From positions 1-64,000 of the forward strand of contig DATNQN010000065.1 in assembly GCA_036703985.1 (NCBI GenBank): 64,000 nt of DNA, written 5' to 3'. The DNA comes from Leptolyngbyaceae cyanobacterium. Its GTDB lineage: Bacteria; Cyanobacteriota; Cyanobacteriia; Cyanobacteriales; Aerosakkonemataceae. The notes under the pieces were generated by a model that was not told the origin of the DNA, ran no database searches, and saw nothing but the letters and a program-made list of their open reading frames with translations. The translations under genes and the position numbers were made by a program. This document shows positions 18,035-32,122 of the stretch, in pieces (positions within the stretch are counted from its first letter, which is position 1; each line of letters starts with the position of its first letter).

Positions 18035-18071
18035 TGACTTATATCGATTACCTGAATGTTTGCTACAGATG

Positions 18072-18144
18072 GTAGAGATGGGCGGGTTTTGATTTTAATT
18101 TAGCTGATGGTAATACAAATATTTTGCGCTAAACCCGTCCCTAC
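18072..18144. repeat. GGGCGGGTTT palindromic repeat, copy 1 (intergenic)
   Basis: Left arm GAGATGGGCGGGTTTTG and right arm GCTAAACCCGTCCCTAC enclose about 45 bases. The same element, of about 66 bp, lies inside the restriction-modification gene at 24731-24797. Placed between trxA and the Old Yellow Enzyme gene. Confidence 0.65.
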
Positions 18145-18236
18145 TCATTTGTCGCAAACATTTGCGTAAACGATATTATTTTTCTGCAAAAATCGTAATT
18201 TTTCCCTCAATATTTCTTTTACTAGAGGTACAAAAG

Positions 18237-22085: not shown

Positions 22086-25000
22086 TTATTGCGCTCTCTG
22101 AATTGGCATCCTGGGTGGTGCAGTTTTCCACATTAGATCGATTTCTTCTGGAGTGAGTTCGTATGCCTGATTAACCAAATCAGATAATTGATGCTCTAGT
22201 TGCAAAATTTCTCGGTTTCTATTTTGCATCGGTACAGCAAATTCATTATAAACTTCTTTGATTTGTTTCTGTTCGGAAACGCCTAATAACTTGCTTCCTT
22301 TTTTGGCTTTTGGCAGTCGTTTGCTGATTTCATCAATGAATTCTTGCTGGCTCAGTTTAGAAAAGTCCTCTAACTTTTGTCCTGGTTTTTCAATATGGAA
22401 TACCGAGCGTAACCAGTCCAGCACATCGCGTTGATTTTCTTGGTTGATTTTTGTTAGTTCGATTAGGCGAGATACTTTCGGTTCAACTTGCGATCGAATT
22501 TCATTGGTGGGTGGTGCAATCGGAAGAGTTTCCATTAAATATCCAAGAGGAGCTAACGCTTCATCCTTCATGTGTGGCAAATATCTCCAATTATGCCACC
22601 ACATTAGAAGAGAATTTAATACAGTTAGAAGATATAAATCATTTGATGGAATTAAGGAAACCTTATTATTAGCAAAATGATTTTCAATTGAAAATGAAAA
22701 ATATGGATGAAATTGTATTTCTTGATAAAAAATTTTAGGAGTTTCAAAAAGTTGCCAATATGCAGTTGAATCTTGAATTTCGTACCATTGGTAATTTCCT
22801 GCTTTTCGTCCACGCCAATCGCCATCTTTTTTCCTATTCCAGTCCTTCGGACAAGGTTCTAACCTCTCTCTATATTGACCAAGAAATGTTTTGATAGCTG
22901 GATAAGTTTCTATATCAATTCCCCTGCGCGTAAAAATCATCCAAAGACCTTCCCAATTAGGAATCCATCTTCTAATGTCTTGACCACGCAAAAAAGGTTT
23001 GATGATTTCAGCCGACTTAGGATCGATTTGAATGAGAGTTTCTTTTGTAGCACTATCAATCAAAAATGCCTCATTGAATCCTGTCGTAACGCCACGATAA
23101 ATTTCAATGTTGGCAAAATCTTTCAATGGAACTCCGACCAGTTTAATCTTTGCCATCAAATCATCTACATCCTGTCGTTCTAAACTCCAAGCATCAGCAG
23201 TAAATCGCGACCAAGGAACAGGGTAGCCTGACTTATGAACATATTCTGTAAGATCTATGTCTTCTAATTTATCGCGGGGAACAGGACAAATGAGAACGGG
23301 AGATTGGGATGAATTAGTTGCATTAGAACGGTAAACTTTACGAACAACAACAATGCAGGGAAAAACATCGGCATCTGCAAAAATGTGGGCGTGTCCAAAA
23401 TCAACAATTTGTTCAAACACACAGTTGTCTGTAAAAAATTTTCTTAGTGCTTCTCCATAACCCGCCCGTAGCCATTTATTAGTAACAATATAAGATAATG
23501 CTCCACTCGTTCTAAGAATCTTCACGCCTCTTTCATAGAAATAGGTGTAAAGATCCGCAACACCATGATAAGACTGGTACTGTCCCTGGAAAAATGGCTT
23601 GATTTCTCCTAATCCTTCCTGTCTAACATACGGAGGATTTCCCACCACTACATCAAAACCAGCCTTCTCATTCCAACTAGCATTTTCCAAATCGATAAAC
23701 ACTTCTGGAAATTCCAAATCCCAATGAAAAAAGCGTTTCTCTTCACCCAGTTTTTGCGCTTCCTCATAAACAGCTTTATCTGCCTTACTCATCTTTTTCG
23801 GATTAGCTGTAATTGCATTCGTTCCATACACCCGCAAAAAATTATCCGATTGTTTCAAACCAAAAAACTTAGAAACATAAATATTTAACAACTGCTTAAA
23901 AGGTTTTGCTGCTTCATCAAAGGAACGAAATAACTTTTCGCTTTGTTCGACTTCGGCAAAAGTAGCATCACTCAAAACACTTACACCGCGCATGATTTCT
24001 GCTGCTTTCAATAAGCCTACAAAAGGCCCAGCTAATAAGTTTAACTGTCCGCTTTCTTCCTGCGCCATCTTTGCTTCTGCTTCTCTCGCTGTCGTACCAA
24101 TCAGCGAATTCCCACAGCGCAAATGATGATCTAAAAAACTCAAAGGTGCGCCAATAGTAAAGGAATGCAGCCACAAACTTACCTTTGCCAACTCTACCGC
24201 CATTGGGTTTAAATCCACACCATAAATGCAACGTTTCATCACTACCCGTTGCAATAATTGAGTTGGTTCTAACCTGTCGGGATTAATTGTAATTCCCTGC
24301 TGTTCTAAGTTTTCTAAAATGCTTTGGCGCGTTTGATCCAGCATTTCCAACACGGGATTATGTTCGGGATATTCGGTTAAAATGCTGATTAATTCATCAG
24401 TCAAATAATCCACTGCTTCCACTAAAAAATGACCGCTTCCCATTGCCGGATCGCACACTTTAATATCGAGTAAAGTGCTTTGGGCTTCTCGTTCTAAGCG
24501 TTGTAAATCTTTTCGCAATCCGTTAATACTTGGTACGCTTAAGCGTTGATCTTCTAATCGATCGTGCAGTTGGGAAATTTGCGCCATTAGTTCGCCAAAT
24601 CGCGCTTGTCGCTGTTCTAAAATTGGCTTGATCGTGTGGCTAACAATGTATTTTACAATATAATCAGGCGTGTAATAAGACCCAGTAGCTTTGCGATCGC
24701 CTTTATCATTTTCTAAATGTACCGATACCTGGAAGGGCGGGTTTTGCTGAGAGATTGTCTGTTCGATTGAAGAGTTATTTGCTAAACCCGCCCCTACGGA
24801 ATCAATAACTACTCGATATTCTAACAATCCCTCATAAATAGAACCAAGTTGTCGCACGCCCAAAAAACTATAATCGATCGGTTGTCCTTCAAATCGCGCC
24901 AGTCGATCTAAAACTGGTGCTAATACGGCATCGGATATCTTAAATTGAGATAAAAAATGATTGGCGCGATACTCTATTCGATCTGATTGCTGATAAAAAT

Positions 25001-26084
25001 CAAAGTGAAATAAACCGCCATTATAGCGAGGTACTCCTAATCCTGCATCACCGCGATCGACTATTTGAAATAAACTTAATAAGCGATCGTACATTCCCGT
25101 AGAAGTTTGGCTCAATTTCTTCTGACGCTCAATCCCTTGGGCTACTTCTTGGGTTAACTTAATTAAGCTATAATCTCGATAATCGCGATCGATTGGTAAT
25201 AAGTTTCTTGCTTCTGCATATAATAAAAATAACAGTTTATAAAGAAATGATAGAGTTGCTGCATACACTTGTTCCGATGTCACTTCTTCCCCCCGTCGGG
25301 TAGCATCCGCCACAAATCCCCCCGCCAAATCGGGAAAAATGCGATCGAACACCAGCGCTTTTAACTCATTCCCCACTCGCGTTGCATAAGTGGTACTACC
25401 ATCGCGCACTCGTTCTAAAAAATTGCGTCCTTGGGTATCTTTAACAAATGCTTCTTGGCGAAAGAATAACCAAAAATATTTAAACTTGTCTAAATCTGCG
25501 TCTTCCAGAAGTTCCACCAAATCCACTTGATAAAACTCCGTTGCGGTAGAAGAAGCTTGTCGATAATATAACCGCCATTCTCTCCCATTCGTCAAAATTC
25601 CCCAATCTACCCCTGTTCCCGTGAGATAGCTAGCAATTTGAAAGGATGGGTTTTCATTTTTATAAATATCCCGTTTATCGTTAGCAGAAACTTTGCTTAA
25701 CGGACGTTCCCAGTATTTTGCTTCTGCGATCGCAATTACCCGCCCATAAAACGCAGTCTCATTATTTTGTAAAGGATAAGCAGAATCGCGATCGCTTTCA
25801 CTATTAAATAAAGCATAATCCGGTCTTTCTGCCCTACCTTTACCGCTCGTCGTCACCTGGGGAATATAACTAAATTTTAGAATACCTAAAGCAGGTTTAA
25901 TAAATACTTCCTCTGTTTGAGCTTCATTCAGCGTTGGTAACAAGTTTCTTTGAGAAATATAAAGATTTTTTAATTTCTGAAAATCGGCAGATACATTTAC
26001 TTGCCATTCTGGACATTCTTGCAGGCGATGTTCCAAATAATGCTGGGAAAATAACGGTTTATTTGGTTTTTGTCGATCTGCCAT
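22086..26084 (-). CDS. Type IIG restriction-modification enzyme (Eco57I-type methylase with fused nuclease)
   Basis: A protein of about 1332 residues (1355 if ATG 26153 is used). The N-terminal part holds a PD-(D/E)xK-type nuclease: Asp in RPDYALF and AIAEAKYW (E-x-K). The central adenine-N6 methyltransferase has CDPAMGSGHFLVEAV (SAM motif) and the catalytic NPPY in VVGNPPYVRQEG. The C-terminal third, with a TaqI-like specificity region (DGDWRGRKAGNYQWYEIQD), would read the target site. One polypeptide therefore modifies and cuts DNA. AGGGGATTCAATC favours ATG 26084. About 22 residues between the nuclease/helical region and the methylase are encoded by a dispersed palindromic repeat in frame. 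The 3' end abuts a BrnT remnant. Confidence 0.9.
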   Translation of the reverse strand: MADRQKPNKPLFSQHYLEHRLQECPEWQVNVSADFQKLKNLYISQRNLLPTLNEAQTEEVFIKPALGILKFSYIPQVTTSGKGRAERPDYALFNSESDRDSAYPLQNNETAFYGRVIAIAEAKYWERPLSKVSANDKRDIYKNENPSFQIASYLTGTGVDWGILTNGREWRLYYRQASSTATEFYQVDLVELLEDADLDKFKYFWLFFRQEAFVKDTQGRNFLERVRDGSTTYATRVGNELKALVFDRIFPDLAGGFVADATRRGEEVTSEQVYAATLSFLYKLLFLLYAEARNLLPIDRDYRDYSLIKLTQEVAQGIERQKKLSQTSTGMYDRLLSLFQIVDRGDAGLGVPRYNGGLFHFDFYQQSDRIEYRANHFLSQFKISDAVLAPVLDRLARFEGQPIDYSFLGVRQLGSIYEGLLEYRVVIDSVGAGLANNSSIEQTISQQNPPFQVSVHLENDKGDRKATGSYYTPDYIVKYIVSHTIKPILEQRQARFGELMAQISQLHDRLEDQRLSVPSINGLRKDLQRLEREAQSTLLDIKVCDPAMGSGHFLVEAVDYLTDELISILTEYPEHNPVLEMLDQTRQSILENLEQQGITINPDRLEPTQLLQRVVMKRCIYGVDLNPMAVELAKVSLWLHSFTIGAPLSFLDHHLRCGNSLIGTTAREAEAKMAQEESGQLNLLAGPFVGLLKAAEIMRGVSVLSDATFAEVEQSEKLFRSFDEAAKPFKQLLNIYVSKFFGLKQSDNFLRVYGTNAITANPKKMSKADKAVYEEAQKLGEEKRFFHWDLEFPEVFIDLENASWNEKAGFDVVVGNPPYVRQEGLGEIKPFFQGQYQSYHGVADLYTYFYERGVKILRTSGALSYIVTNKWLRAGYGEALRKFFTDNCVFEQIVDFGHAHIFADADVFPCIVVVRKVYRSNATNSSQSPVLICPVPRDKLEDIDLTEYVHKSGYPVPWSRFTADAWSLERQDVDDLMAKIKLVGVPLKDFANIEIYRGVTTGFNEAFLIDSATKETLIQIDPKSAEIIKPFLRGQDIRRWIPNWEGLWMIFTRRGIDIETYPAIKTFLGQYRERLEPCPKDWNRKKDGDWRGRKAGNYQWYEIQDSTAYWQLFETPKIFYQEIQFHPYFSFSIENHFANNKVSLIPSNDLYLLTVLNSLLMWWHNWRYLPHMKDEALAPLGYLMETLPIAPPTNEIRSQVEPKVSRLIELTKINQENQRDVLDWLRSVFHIEKPGQKLEDFSKLSQQEFIDEISKRLPKAKKGSKLLGVSEQKQIKEVYNEFAVPMQNRNREILQLEHQLSDLVNQAYELTPEEIDLMWKTAPPRMPIQRAQ
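24731..24797. repeat. GGGCGGGTTT palindromic repeat, copy 2, inside the R-M gene
   Basis: On the coding (minus) strand it begins GTAGGGGCGGGTTTAGC and ends CAAAACCCGCCC, with arms matching 12 of 14 bases and about 36 bases between. It encodes VGAGLANNSSIEQ followed by TISQQNPPFQ in frame, just before the methylase segment KATGSYYTPDY. The same element is intergenic at 18072-18144. Confidence 0.75.
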
Positions 26085-26380
26085 GATTGAATCCCCTGCT
26101 TTTTTGTATTCCCATTTCATTCTAATAGGATTTAGGTATAAGCTAAAGCGCATCTAATTTGTATATTTCCGAGTGTCGAGGAAAACTGTCAATCCCTCTC
26201 CCCATCCCCCCATCCCCCCATCTCCCCATCAAGCTCAATATCAAAATTAAATGCGTAGCAGCTTAGCTAGCAGACTAGGAGTAAGAGTTTAAAATATTAA
26301 AAACTCTTATCTCCCACTGATTACATTCTGACTTTTGAATTCAGAAGTCAGAATTATTCAATTACGCCTAGCTATAAGAA

Positions 26381-26412: not shown

Positions 26413-28329
26413 TCAAACTTGTTTCAAATAAGATTCAAACCGCTCTTTTAACTGCTGAATTGACAAATTTTTCGTCCAAAATTCTACCAAAGCATGACCG
26501 AAAGCCCAAGCATTGCGTTCGGGTGTGGCAGAATTTTCTAATAATAATGGCCAAAGAGCTAGTAAATCGAATTTGAGGGTATTAGAATCACCAGTATTTA
26601 AGAGATTAAATAGCTCGTAAGCCATTTGCAATTTACCAATTACTATGGGTAATTGTTCGACGGGAATTTGTTCGGCTAACAGATATGCTAGTTGTGGCGA
26701 TCCGGTTGATAATGTAGAAACAAATCGGAGGATCGGACTTTTCAGGAGGGCGGTTAATCCTTGAGAGGTTGCCATTTGGAATGTGTAGCGATCGATAATT
26801 TTTGCCGCCGCTACGGTACGGGCATCCAAGTTACGCAAAAAACGCGCTAACCGTAGTTGTTTGGTAGGTTCGATCGATTCTACTAAAGCAAGGGATAAAG
26901 CATCGACACCCCAAGCATCGCGATTGGTTTTGCGATCGCTGGTAACGATTGGTAATACGAAATCGCAATATTCACCTAACTGCTGTTCCCGATATTTAGT
27001 AGCTTCTCGAATCGAAATTTCCTTTGGTCGATCGCCCCATTCCCAATCATAAGGCGGTTGCCATTCTCGGATCGGACGCAAGCGATCGACTTGAGTAACA
27101 ATGGCGATCGCAGGCAGATTTTCGATTTCTCCGATCGTCTCTTTAAGAAAGTCTACATCCATTTGCAAAGCCGGATCGAGGGCAGGGGTAACGAGTAACA
27201 GTAAATCTGCATTATCTGCATACTCTAAAACTGTATTTCGCAATTCTTCACCCTTCACTTGTTCGTATCCCGGAGTATCCCAAAGAGTGAGAGTTTCTCC
27301 GCTTTCAGTTTGCCATTGATAATTCTGAATTTTATCCGTACTGGGCAGCACATCAACTGCTGCTTTTTCTGATTGAAATAAAGTATTAATTAAACTGCTT
27401 TTTCCCGCACCAGTCCGCCCTACCAACAAAATATTAACAGGTTTCTGGATAACCTTTTCTTCCGGTTCTGCTTGTGCCAAAATATCGCGTAGAGTTTGCG
27501 TTTTTGTTTTGGGAAGTGTGGGAGTAGAAACCGCAAATTCTTTCGCTGGGAGAGTAGTACCGCCGTAAAGCGCGATCGCTTGTCCGCACAAATTCCGCAA
27601 CGCTGCTTCTCGCAACAATCGACTTAAATTTACCAGTAATTCTTCAGTGGCGCGATTATTAGAACCCTGAGTTGCTGTTTTAGCTAATGCCGCCGCCGGA
27701 TTCAAAAACCATTGCGCCCAGTTCCAAGCTTGCCAGAGTTTGCGTGCCGATGGTTCTAACTTGCGGTAGACTTCATAAGCTTGGTATGCTTGTGCAACAG
27801 TTACCTGATTGAGGGCGGGAGATAATTGTTGCATCCACCGATCCATATCATCCACTGTCCCCCGAATTAGTCCGTAAGCTTGGGGAACATAGATATTTAG
27901 TAGGGGATATTTGACTTCTGGATGGTAGATATGTGCGATCGCCACAATCATATCTTGACATCGCTGCCAAAAAGTGGGCCAGTCCTCCCACATTGGGCGA
28001 TCGTTCTGCGCTGCTTGGAGAATTTCTTTTAATGCTGTAGTTGCTTTGTCGGTGTCGTCATTTCCTGCGATCGATCCAATTCTACTGGTAGCACTATCTT
28101 CTAGTTCCTTGCTGACTTGTGCAACCACCGCTTCGATCTGCGCCACCGCCGGTTGCGTCCATTTTACCAACAACCAACGCCACCCCACAAATACCAGCGT
28201 AAATACAGCCCAAATCCAATTAATGCGCCACTCATGAATTTGCAATCCCGCCGCTATCATCAAGAAACCGATGATACTTGCGATCGGTGTTGCTAATACG
28301 ATCCATTGCCATAATTTTAATCGCACCAT
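26413..28329 (-). CDS. Membrane-anchored Era/YcjX-like GTPase
   Basis: A 638-residue protein. Two hydrophobic helices near residues 10-30 and 37-55 anchor the N-terminus. A helical region follows (60-290), then a GTPase domain: G1 LVGRTGAGKSSL near 301, G3 DTPG near 350, G4 TQVD near 410. The C-terminal 150 residues are helical. G5 is not obvious. Such membrane GTPases occur across cyanobacteria, often near DUF697 GTPases. A second one is 2.5 kb away at 30791-32122. The function is unknown; envelope or stress roles are only guesses. Start ATG 28329. Confidence 0.8.
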   Translation of the reverse strand: MVRLKLWQWIVLATPIASIIGFLMIAAGLQIHEWRINWIWAVFTLVFVGWRWLLVKWTQPAVAQIEAVVAQVSKELEDSATSRIGSIAGNDDTDKATTALKEILQAAQNDRPMWEDWPTFWQRCQDMIVAIAHIYHPEVKYPLLNIYVPQAYGLIRGTVDDMDRWMQQLSPALNQVTVAQAYQAYEVYRKLEPSARKLWQAWNWAQWFLNPAAALAKTATQGSNNRATEELLVNLSRLLREAALRNLCGQAIALYGGTTLPAKEFAVSTPTLPKTKTQTLRDILAQAEPEEKVIQKPVNILLVGRTGAGKSSLINTLFQSEKAAVDVLPSTDKIQNYQWQTESGETLTLWDTPGYEQVKGEELRNTVLEYADNADLLLLVTPALDPALQMDVDFLKETIGEIENLPAIAIVTQVDRLRPIREWQPPYDWEWGDRPKEISIREATKYREQQLGEYCDFVLPIVTSDRKTNRDAWGVDALSLALVESIEPTKQLRLARFLRNLDARTVAAAKIIDRYTFQMATSQGLTALLKSPILRFVSTLSTGSPQLAYLLAEQIPVEQLPIVIGKLQMAYELFNLLNTGDSNTLKFDLLALWPLLLENSATPERNAWAFGHALVEFWTKNLSIQQLKERFESYLKQV

Positions 28330-30790: not shown

Positions 30791-32122
30791 TTAAGTTTTA
30801 ATCCCCTTAAACCGTTCTTTCGCATTTTGAAAAGCTTCTTGCATTGCCGCTTGAATTCGTTTGGGGTCTGGCTTTTTCCCTCCCATCAAATCACCGAAAT
30901 AAACACAAGCGCCTTCACCTAATGCCAAAGTGTATGCAGCTGCCCAAGAAGCTGCGATCGCACTGCCAAAACCAGGTATAAATTTAACTAACTCCCGTCC
31001 GATCGCTTGAGCGACAAAACCACCTGCGATCGCGCTTACCACACCCCCCGCTTGCGATGGGCTAAGAGTTTGACCGTACAATTTACCCAACACCCCCACC
31101 ATCGATACTTGCAATGCCGTCAGTACGGGCATGGTAGCCAAAGGTAACGGTACAGCGGCTAAGGTAGCTGCCATAATTGAAAATGCCAAAATGTAGCGGC
31201 GTCCGACATCTCGGTACAAATTGCCAATTTGTTCGCCAACTTTCTCATCTAATAACTGATAAATAGCCGCCGCCTCCGCTTCTGGCAAAAGTTCTGCCAA
31301 CCCATCTCGGAAAGCTTCTAAGCCGTAAAATACGGGAGTGTAGCCATCTTCTTCTAGAGTAAAATCAATTAGTACGGCCCGATCGCACAACCCAGTAAAC
31401 GCATCTCGAATTGCATCAAAAGCCCGTTTCACTTCTTCAAATTCCGGTGGATAAGGGGGATGATTATCAGTACCGACGGGATATAATTCGTGCAAGCAAG
31501 TAACTGCCAACAAACAAGGAATATCGGGATATTTCTGACGCAACCGTTGGGCGATTTGCCGCAAAGTATCGATCGCGAAATCATTAATTTTGACCGTTAA
31601 AATTAATACCCTAGCGCAGCGAGTGTCCTGTTTGAGATCGCCGATCAATTCTTGTACGATCGCCTCAGTATTTTGATTAACATCTCCCAATCCCACCGTA
31701 TCCGTAAAAATCAACAACGGCACTTCCCCGGAAGGATAAGCATAACGTTGCGTGTGTTGCGTGTGGGGGCGAAATCCTTGCCCGACAATTTCTGCCGAAA
31801 CTCCCGTCAATCCGCGCACGATCGAACTTTTCCCAGCTTGCGGTTTACCGATTAACAGCGCTTCCGTCGTTGGCAATTGGGCGCGAACAGTCTCCAAAAT
31901 CTGCGCCACCTCAGCATCGCTGACACTAAACCATTGCAGAAACTTTTGTGTCAATTGTTCTACAGGTAGAAGTTTGGTTAAGCGTCCGGTAGTGGTATTC
32001 CAAGCATCAGCAATCCGATCGATCTGGAATTTTTTTAGCAATCCAGACTTCTTATCGTCAATCGGTTCGTTGGCTGGCTGAGAATTATCTGACATATTCT
32101 CAGGATCGTGTTGTTCGGTCAT
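30791..32122 (-). CDS. GTPase with C-terminal DUF697-like membrane domain
   Basis: A 443-residue protein. The GTPase core follows an acidic N-terminus: G1 LIGKPQAGKSSIVRGL near residue 92, G3 in FTDTVGLGD, and a G4-like TCLH in LLAVTCLHELYP, which departs from the usual N/TKxD. The C-terminal 150 residues (FSIMAATLAAVPLPLATMPVL, SAIAGGFVAQAIG, GFGSAIAASWAAAYTL) are hydrophobic and match the DUF697 type. The odd G4 suggests altered nucleotide choice. It is a likely functional relative of the GTPase at 26413-28329. Start ATG 32122. Confidence 0.85.
   Translation of the reverse strand: MTEQHDPENMSDNSQPANEPIDDKKSGLLKKFQIDRIADAWNTTTGRLTKLLPVEQLTQKFLQWFSVSDAEVAQILETVRAQLPTTEALLIGKPQAGKSSIVRGLTGVSAEIVGQGFRPHTQHTQRYAYPSGEVPLLIFTDTVGLGDVNQNTEAIVQELIGDLKQDTRCARVLILTVKINDFAIDTLRQIAQRLRQKYPDIPCLLAVTCLHELYPVGTDNHPPYPPEFEEVKRAFDAIRDAFTGLCDRAVLIDFTLEEDGYTPVFYGLEAFRDGLAELLPEAEAAAIYQLLDEKVGEQIGNLYRDVGRRYILAFSIMAATLAAVPLPLATMPVLTALQVSMVGVLGKLYGQTLSPSQAGGVVSAIAGGFVAQAIGRELVKFIPGFGSAIAASWAAAYTLALGEGACVYFGDLMGGKKPDPKRIQAAMQEAFQNAKERFKGIKT

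What the first reader, a model, noticed from the sequence alone, without database searches (positions are those of the whole stretch)
24731..24797. Dispersed palindromic repeat inserted in frame in the restriction-modification gene
Seen: an element of about 66 bp with matching GGGCGGGTTT arms lies inside the coding sequence and keeps the frame, encoding about 22 residues between the helical region and the methylase. A related copy is intergenic at 18072-18144. A mobile repeat tolerated as protein sequence is unusual.
Basis: seen in the sequence. Interest (0 to 1): 0.5.

Follow-up and report, generated by a model that had tools for sequence, protein, structure and literature searches.

The report
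Repeat-insertion hot spot in restriction enzyme
A small palindromic repeat scattered through a cyanobacterial genome has landed in frame in a restriction enzyme gene, at a floppy loop where other kinds of repeat have also landed in relatives from two bacterial phyla.

Summary
A dispersed palindromic repeat (GTAGGGGCGGGTTT…AAACCCGCCC, about 67 bp) lies in frame at 24729-24799 (-) in a 1355-aa Eco57I-type single-chain R-M gene and encodes VGAGLANNSSIEQTISQQNPPF. Of 62 genome copies examined, only this one lies in a long open frame. No other of 131 distinct homologues has the peptide; the commonest homologue linker is 60 nt shorter.

The main new result goes beyond the finding. The same linker, between YEGLLEY and GSYYTP, carries palindromic inserts in 13 of the 131, of about seven kinds (grouped by eye), in Cyanobacteria and Chloroflexota. 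All 12 that can be judged are in frame. Ten of 13 belong to kinds seen in several copies in their own genomes. A tree needs 10 changes of the label. Close sister genes lack the insert (L021 for L020, L216 for L246). AlphaFold2, with modest local confidence, puts the insert at the tip of a beta-hairpin before the methylase.

Best reading: selfish repeats survive where a length-tolerant surface turn lets them be translated. In-frame coding palindromes are known (Rickettsia RPEs, intragenic REPs); one linker hit this often was not found in my paper searches.

The parts
22086..26153 (-). R-M gene, 1355 aa: HSDR_N-like N-terminus (below Pfam's cut-off), Eco57I/N6_Mtase methylase, TaqI_C specificity domain
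   Evidence: motifs EAKYW 144, DPAMGSGHF 568, NPPY 839
24687..24815 (-). linker between YEGLLEY and TGSYYTP, 129 nt (commonest length in the 131 homologues is 69 nt, 36 of 131)
24729..24799 (-). palindromic module, GTAGGGGCGGGTTTAG...CAAAACCCGCCCTTCC on the coding strand
24732..24797 (-). 22 codons read through the module: VGAGLANNSSIEQTISQQNPPF
24784..24793 (-). left arm on the coding strand, GGGCGGGTTT
24735..24744 (+). right arm (shown on +), GGGCGGGTTT
18074..18146 (-). second copy of the module, intergenic, between a thioredoxin gene and an FMN oxidoreductase gene
18041..18176 (.). 136-bp outer element (MITE-like) around that copy, imperfect 30-bp terminal inverted repeats ATATCGTTTACGC.../ATATCGATTACC...

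Best explanation
The feature is one copy of a dispersed, non-autonomous palindromic repeat that inserted into a single-chain R-M gene and is translated as a 22-residue, probably disordered, extension of a beta-hairpin turn just in front of the methylase domain. The turn tolerates length change, so in-frame insertions there are neutral or nearly so and persist, while insertions elsewhere in genes are mostly purged. Other kinds of palindromic repeat in other lineages have therefore landed and survived at the same turn many times. Shown: repeat identity, in-frame reading, uninserted sister genes, several insert kinds, sequence conservation of the gene. Inferred: transposition as the route, neutrality, retained enzyme activity, purging elsewhere.
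For: 62 copies examined in the genome; only this one in a long ORF. 13 of 131 distinct homologues carry palindromic linker inserts of about seven kinds; 12 of 12 judgeable are in frame. Ten of 13 belong to kinds with several copies in their own genomes. Close flanks with and without insert: L020/L021 99%, L246/L216 96% over 140 residues. Tree: 10 changes needed, 7 forced by supported branches. Strong stems in the linker 8.3 to 18.3 times as frequent per base as in the rest of the gene, by threshold. AF2: strands at model 217-222 and 248-253 flank residues 226-243 with pLDDT under 50. dN/dS of the window gene over about 865 codons 0.14-0.15 v. 0.13 in an insert-free pair.
Against: No transposase or target duplication for this repeat was identified: of five Y1-transposase matches one lies near a copy, and it is a 63-aa remnant. 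Three of 13 inserts (L153, L154, L173) are palindromic but not shown to be dispersed. Strong stems also occur outside the linker (33 gene-bins against 9 linkers at the lowest threshold). The insert label is clustered on the tree (3 of 500 shuffles as low as 10 changes; mean 12.5), so some inserts may share an origin. The hairpin region has modest pLDDT (blocks 58, 43, 65). L020/L021 has dN/dS 0.45, so constraint may be relaxed there. Homologues were found through protein matches, so frame-shifted copies may be under-sampled. No activity data. No genome labelled same genus appeared.
Confidence: 0.83

Rival explanations
1. The linker DNA is a preferred target of the transposition machinery, so the hot spot reflects insertion preference and not tolerance.
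For: Different repeats land within a few codons of each other.
Against: About seven repeat kinds with different arm sequences share no target sequence that I could see by eye in the printed linkers (no motif search was made). All 12 judgeable inserts keep the frame, which insertion preference alone does not predict.
Confidence: 0.07
2. The inserts are selected: linker length or charge tunes restriction against methylation, or helps evade anti-restriction proteins, so repeats are recruited as spacers.
For: Recurrence in two phyla; 10 changes on the tree. L253 has expanded its insert to a 306-nt linker.
Against: Most short-linker homologues lack an insert (74 of 87). Insert peptides differ widely in sequence. 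dN/dS of the inserted window gene is unremarkable.
Confidence: 0.1
3. The peptide is an old native part of the protein that resembles the repeat by chance.
For: None found.
Against: 81-bit model match; none of the other 130 distinct homologues has the peptide; 18 exact-arm copies in the genome against 0 in the control; blastn of the linker finds other genome copies at 79-84% over 60-73 bases.
Confidence: 0.01

Closest known systems
Rickettsia palindromic elements (RPEs)
   Same: Palindromic repeat inserted in frame in protein genes and translated (passages of PMC10969869)
   Different: RPEs are about 150 bp and sit in frame in many unrelated genes; here 1 of 62 copies examined is genic, and the new point is many repeat kinds at one site
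Intragenic GTAG/CGTC REPs (Di Nocera et al. 2013, PMC3733652; sections and passages read)
   Same: GTAG at one end of a palindromic repeat; three cyanobacterial families reported; intragenic copies reported; different REPs at about the same site in recB of two Xanthomonas species
   Different: Here the loop is typically 39 nt instead of 2-20, the GTAG end is largely mirrored at the other end, and no partner RAYT was found
Bacterial MITEs
   Same: Short, multi-copy, inverted-repeat ends; 8 of 62 copies of the module lie inside larger elements with significant outer inverted repeats
   Different: No transposase or target duplication identified; the R-M copy has no outer inverted repeat
Single-chain Eco57I/type IIG R-M enzymes; nearest solved relatives CamA and BREX PglX/BrxX
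   Same: Methylase motifs and domains
   Different: The global structure match is weak (TM 0.40 or less by query length, rmsd about 15 A for the best); significant sequence matches to solved structures lie in the methylase and downstream of it

Membership tests
Rickettsia palindromic elements (protein-coding palindromes) | palindromic repeat read in frame inside a conserved gene | tested here: met
Rickettsia palindromic elements (protein-coding palindromes) | family commonly inserted in frame in many unrelated genes | tested here: not met
   1 of 62 copies examined lies in a long ORF
GTAG REP | GTAG at one end, in most members | tested here: met
   G 0.89, T 0.96, A 0.91, G 0.89 in 46 A-type copies; 0.88, 1.0, 0.94, 0.94 in 16 B-type copies
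GTAG REP | stem 5-13 bp with a loop of 2-20 nt and an unpaired GTAG | tested here: not met
   10-bp arms but typically a 39-nt loop; right end CTTAC/CTAC mirrors GTA (definition)
GTAG REP | partner RAYT transposase flanked by the repeat | tested here: not met
   5 Y1_Tnp matches in the genome, one near a copy and only a 63-aa remnant
MITE | inverted-repeat ends, many copies, short | tested here: met
MITE | target-site duplication and a related autonomous transposon | not tested
   no uninserted site from a close enough relative; no systematic transposon search made
Type IIG / Eco57I-type R-M | one chain with endonuclease-like N-terminus, N6-adenine methylase motifs and specificity domain | tested here: met
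   Eco57I 152.8 bits, TaqI_C 29.2 over cut-off; HSDR_N 22.7 is below its cut-off, so the endonuclease part is weak; motifs; PADLOC REase_MTase_IIG, although DrmMI scores higher
Type IIG / Eco57I-type R-M | restriction and methylation activity | not testable with these tools
   needs bench work
DISARM (DrmMI is the best PADLOC hit) | neighbouring drm genes | tested here: not met
   none among the 7 neighbouring ORFs scanned

The most novel reading that the evidence does not exclude
The linker in front of the methylase domain is an evolvable length dial. Cells repeatedly recruit whichever palindromic repeat is abundant in their own genome to lengthen it, and this alters the balance of restriction and methylation or the escape from phage anti-restriction proteins. 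Selfish DNA would then be a recurrent supplier of adaptive spacers in one class of defence enzyme.
Probability: 0.12. Interest if true: 0.75.

Novelty: new variant of a known kind. Interest (0 to 1): 0.52.

Why it matters
Coding palindromes are usually described genome by genome. Here one position in one protein family offers many natural insertions of several kinds of repeat, with closely related uninserted sisters. That makes an open question directly testable: do translated selfish repeats change a protein, or merely survive where they do no harm? It also marks a natural insertion site for tags or domains in single-chain R-M enzymes.

Tried and rejected
RAYT/REP membership: considered because of the GTAG end and rejected as a filing (loop length, mirrored end, no partner transposase). 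RNA element: Rfam found nothing at its gathering scores in the window. DISARM: best PADLOC hit, but none of the 7 neighbours scanned is a drm gene. A coding bias of the repeat itself: the VGAGLA frame is open in 34 of 62 copies against about 30% for shuffles; I put this down to stop-free arms and did not pursue it. Target duplications were not determined: the nearest uninserted homologues are too diverged at the DNA level. MFE z-score of the window linker alone is weak (-1.4), so folding energy was not used as evidence for it.

Rows dropped before counts: L031-L042 and L044-L048 had no linker anchors and were left out, as was L207 (a repeat of the window gene). Of the loci given to, 175 had anchors, reduced to 131 by exact duplication of the linker and its flanks. 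In one search, 406 loci encoded a relative but only the best 80 were returned. The tree used 125 of the 131. The copy census stopped at 62 places (E up to 0.0134) of a list that runs to E = 10; only frames of 100 aa or more were listed, within about 2.5 kb on each side. The grouping of inserts into seven kinds is by eye. The first stem scan limited the spacing of the outer seeds instead of the loop and so missed L252; one search repeats it with the loop limit, and its figures are used here. It counts 9 of the 13 inserts at the lowest threshold and 3 at the highest; the window gene counts only at the lowest.

Full report
OBSERVATION. The arms GGGCGGGTTT are exact at 24735-24744 (+) and 24784-24793 (-), and a near copy lies at 18080-18140 with one arm mismatch. 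The element lies in an ORF of 1355 aa, 22086-26153 (-), which reads through it. Pfam finds Eco57I (152.8 bits), N6_Mtase, MmeI_Mtase and TaqI_C over their cut-offs, and HSDR_N below its cut-off. PADLOC gives two DrmMI models first and several REase_MTase_IIG models next. None of the seven neighbouring ORFs scanned is a drm gene. The peptide VGAGLANNSSIEQTISQQNPPF starts at residue 453.

THE REPEAT. In the window's own 7.68-Mb genome the exact-arm pattern occurs 18 times, against 0 for the pattern read backwards. A fixed-length pattern with up to 3 mismatches gives 34. A covariance model of 18 copies gives a list from which I took 62 places with E up to 0.0134. The left end GTAG is conserved (0.89-0.96 per base in 46 A-type copies) and the right end reads CTTAC or CTAC. 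Sixteen B-type copies share about 30 further conserved bases on each side, ending in TAAGTAGG...CCTACTTA. Eight of 62 copies have an outer inverted repeat above the 99th percentile of shuffles, of at least four sequence types; the copy at 18074 is one of them (136-bp element), the R-M copy is not. So the module occurs bare or inside larger MITE-like elements. The model has a match in 27 of 60 genomes searched, among them all ten of the window's family, itself included. Of the 62 copies, only the R-M copy lies in a long frame open on both sides; two others lie in frames of 101 and 104 aa with 17 and 11 codons after the repeat.

THE HOMOLOGUES. A whole-protein search of 148 genomes gave 93 with a match, many to the methylase part only. 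Comparing linkers showed uninserted homologues with a 20-codon gap at the insert. Unexpectedly, L020 (G067) carries a different palindromic repeat, PPQPPFSKGGEG, at the same place, and L030 (G106) carries the same kind of repeat with an assembly gap inside the linker. I then gathered homologues by an anchor search of named genomes (80 of 406 relatives returned), of 386 genomes of the window's phylum (16 with a match at E 1e-25 or better) and of 400 genomes of the phylum of the Anaerolineae locus L152 (105 with a match at E 1e-12 or better), and fetched 40 further stretches. 175 loci had both anchors, 131 of them distinct.

THE HOT SPOT. Thirteen of the 131 carry palindromic inserts between the anchors: the window gene (GTAGGGGCGGGTTT); L020 and L030 (CCCCCC...GGGGGG); L151 (GAAACCTGACAGGTCT, a perfect 16-bp stem); L152, L153, L155 and L246 (CCCTCTCCC/GGGAGAGGG kind); L251, L252 and L253 (GGATGAAGGATGAAG kind); L154 (GGAGGACGG); L173 (AGACCCGAA...TTCGGGTCT). 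Twelve are in frame; L030 cannot be judged because of the gap. Of the rest, 74 have linkers of 81 nt or less and 44 have longer linkers in which I saw no strong palindrome. Several copies in the own genome were seen for ten: the window; L020 (itself and two adjacent places at about 90 and 84%), L030 (through L150, the same linker in a named record), L151, L152 and L155; L246 and L251; and L252 and L253, whose genome G507 holds many matches to the L251 probe (their own letters were not used). For L153 its genome has one match, itself. For L154 and L173 the listed rows show only the insert itself, but those lists are capped; one 92% match to L173's insert lies in another genome, G481.

INDEPENDENCE. 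Sister genes with 99% (L020/L021) and 96% (L246/L216) identity over 140 flanking residues differ by the insert. A tree of 125 rows needs 10 changes of the label, 7 forced by supported branches, with all kinds counted as one label. The label is clustered all the same: the shuffled mean is 12.5 and 3 of 500 shuffles are as low as 10. The window gene and its nearest relative L030 carry different kinds, and one clade of six mixes three kinds. The quick tree method and long branches make some placements unsure.

ENRICHMENT. In the gene body of the 130 in-frame homologues, strong stems lie in 9 linkers and 33 other gene-bins at the lowest threshold, while linkers are 3.2% of the bases: a rate ratio of 8.3, binomial P 5.7e-6. 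Higher thresholds give 6 v. 21 (8.7), 5 v. 10 (15.2) and 3 v. 5 (18.3). Codon shuffling expects 18.6 of the 47 stems at the lowest threshold and 0.4 of the 8 at the highest. An earlier version of the scan gave 7.6 to 13.5. Strong stems also occur elsewhere in these genes, for example L243 at about 86 and 191 codons after the linker, so the linker is a main site and not the only one.

STRUCTURE AND FUNCTION. AlphaFold2 on residues 230-960 with 38 rows (mean pLDDT 76, pTM 0.72) puts strands at model 217-222 and 248-253 and a stretch under pLDDT 50 at 226-243, which is P0001 455-472, nearly the whole insert. The blocks of ten around it average 82, 58, 43 and 65, so the hairpin itself is modestly predicted. 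It lies just before the TGSYYTP start of the methylase. Foldseek's best solved matches are BREX PglX/BrxX and CamA, with TM 0.40 or less by query length; sequence search finds the CamA entries first. The motifs EAKYW, DPAMGSGHF and NPPY are intact. Over about 865 codons from the N-terminal part through the methylase core, dN/dS of the window gene against L021 and L118 is 0.146 and 0.136, like the insert-free pair L021/L118 (0.132); dS is above 1 in these pairs. With more of the gene, including the more divergent C-terminal part, the values are 0.263 (window gene/L021) and 0.208 (L021/L118). L020/L021 is higher (0.446; 0.539), so relaxed constraint after that insertion is possible.

LITERATURE. 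From PMC3733652 I read the abstract, the sections on GTAG families, dimers and genome distribution, the first part of the discussion and search passages. It describes GTAG/CGTC REPs, three cyanobacterial families, intragenic REPs, the suggestion that inserts may sit in flexible linkers or loops, and REPs at about the same site in recB of two Xanthomonas species. From PMC10969869 I read passages on RPE in-frame fusions. Seven paper searches returned nothing in their listings on an insertion hot spot in a type IIG or Eco57I-type linker; the library is open-access only, and the consensus sequences of the REP paper are in a figure that is not held.

VERDICT. The single insertion is a new example of a known phenomenon. 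The recurrent decoration of one hairpin turn by several kinds of repeat in two phyla is the more interesting result and is best explained by tolerance. Neutrality, activity and the mobilising enzyme remain untested.

Noticed in passing
18041-18176: 136-bp MITE-like element around the second copy; similar outer ends flank copies in L077 and L101 (just beyond the window end) and, more weakly, L075.
   Followed up: partly
L072, L073, L080, L081, L083, L084, L085, L088, L091, L094, L100, L102, L103, L105, L107, L108: Highly conserved subfamily of about 130 bp with ends TAAGTAGG...CCTACTTA around the same module; its mobilising enzyme is unknown.
   Followed up: partly
L253 linker (G507): Linker grown to 306 nt of GGATGAAGG-type units, still in frame: a translated repeat array that could vary in length.
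   Followed up: no
L243 about 86 and 191 codons after the linker; L183 about 275; L258: Further strong palindromes in genes of this set, outside the linker: possible secondary landing sites.
   Followed up: no
L028 3255-3333 and L144 2575-2653: A repeat similar to the L152 insert (83% over 82 bases) lies upstream of the linker in a cyanobacterial homologue.
   Followed up: no
26413-28329 and 30791-32122: Two MMR_HSR1/dynamin-like GTPase genes near the R-M gene; PADLOC gives weak LeoA/LeoBC matches.
   Followed up: no
L040, L041 (G007, G003): Partial relatives of the R-M gene with two stops inside, in two same-family genomes (89 and 88% identity over residues 18-298).
   Followed up: no
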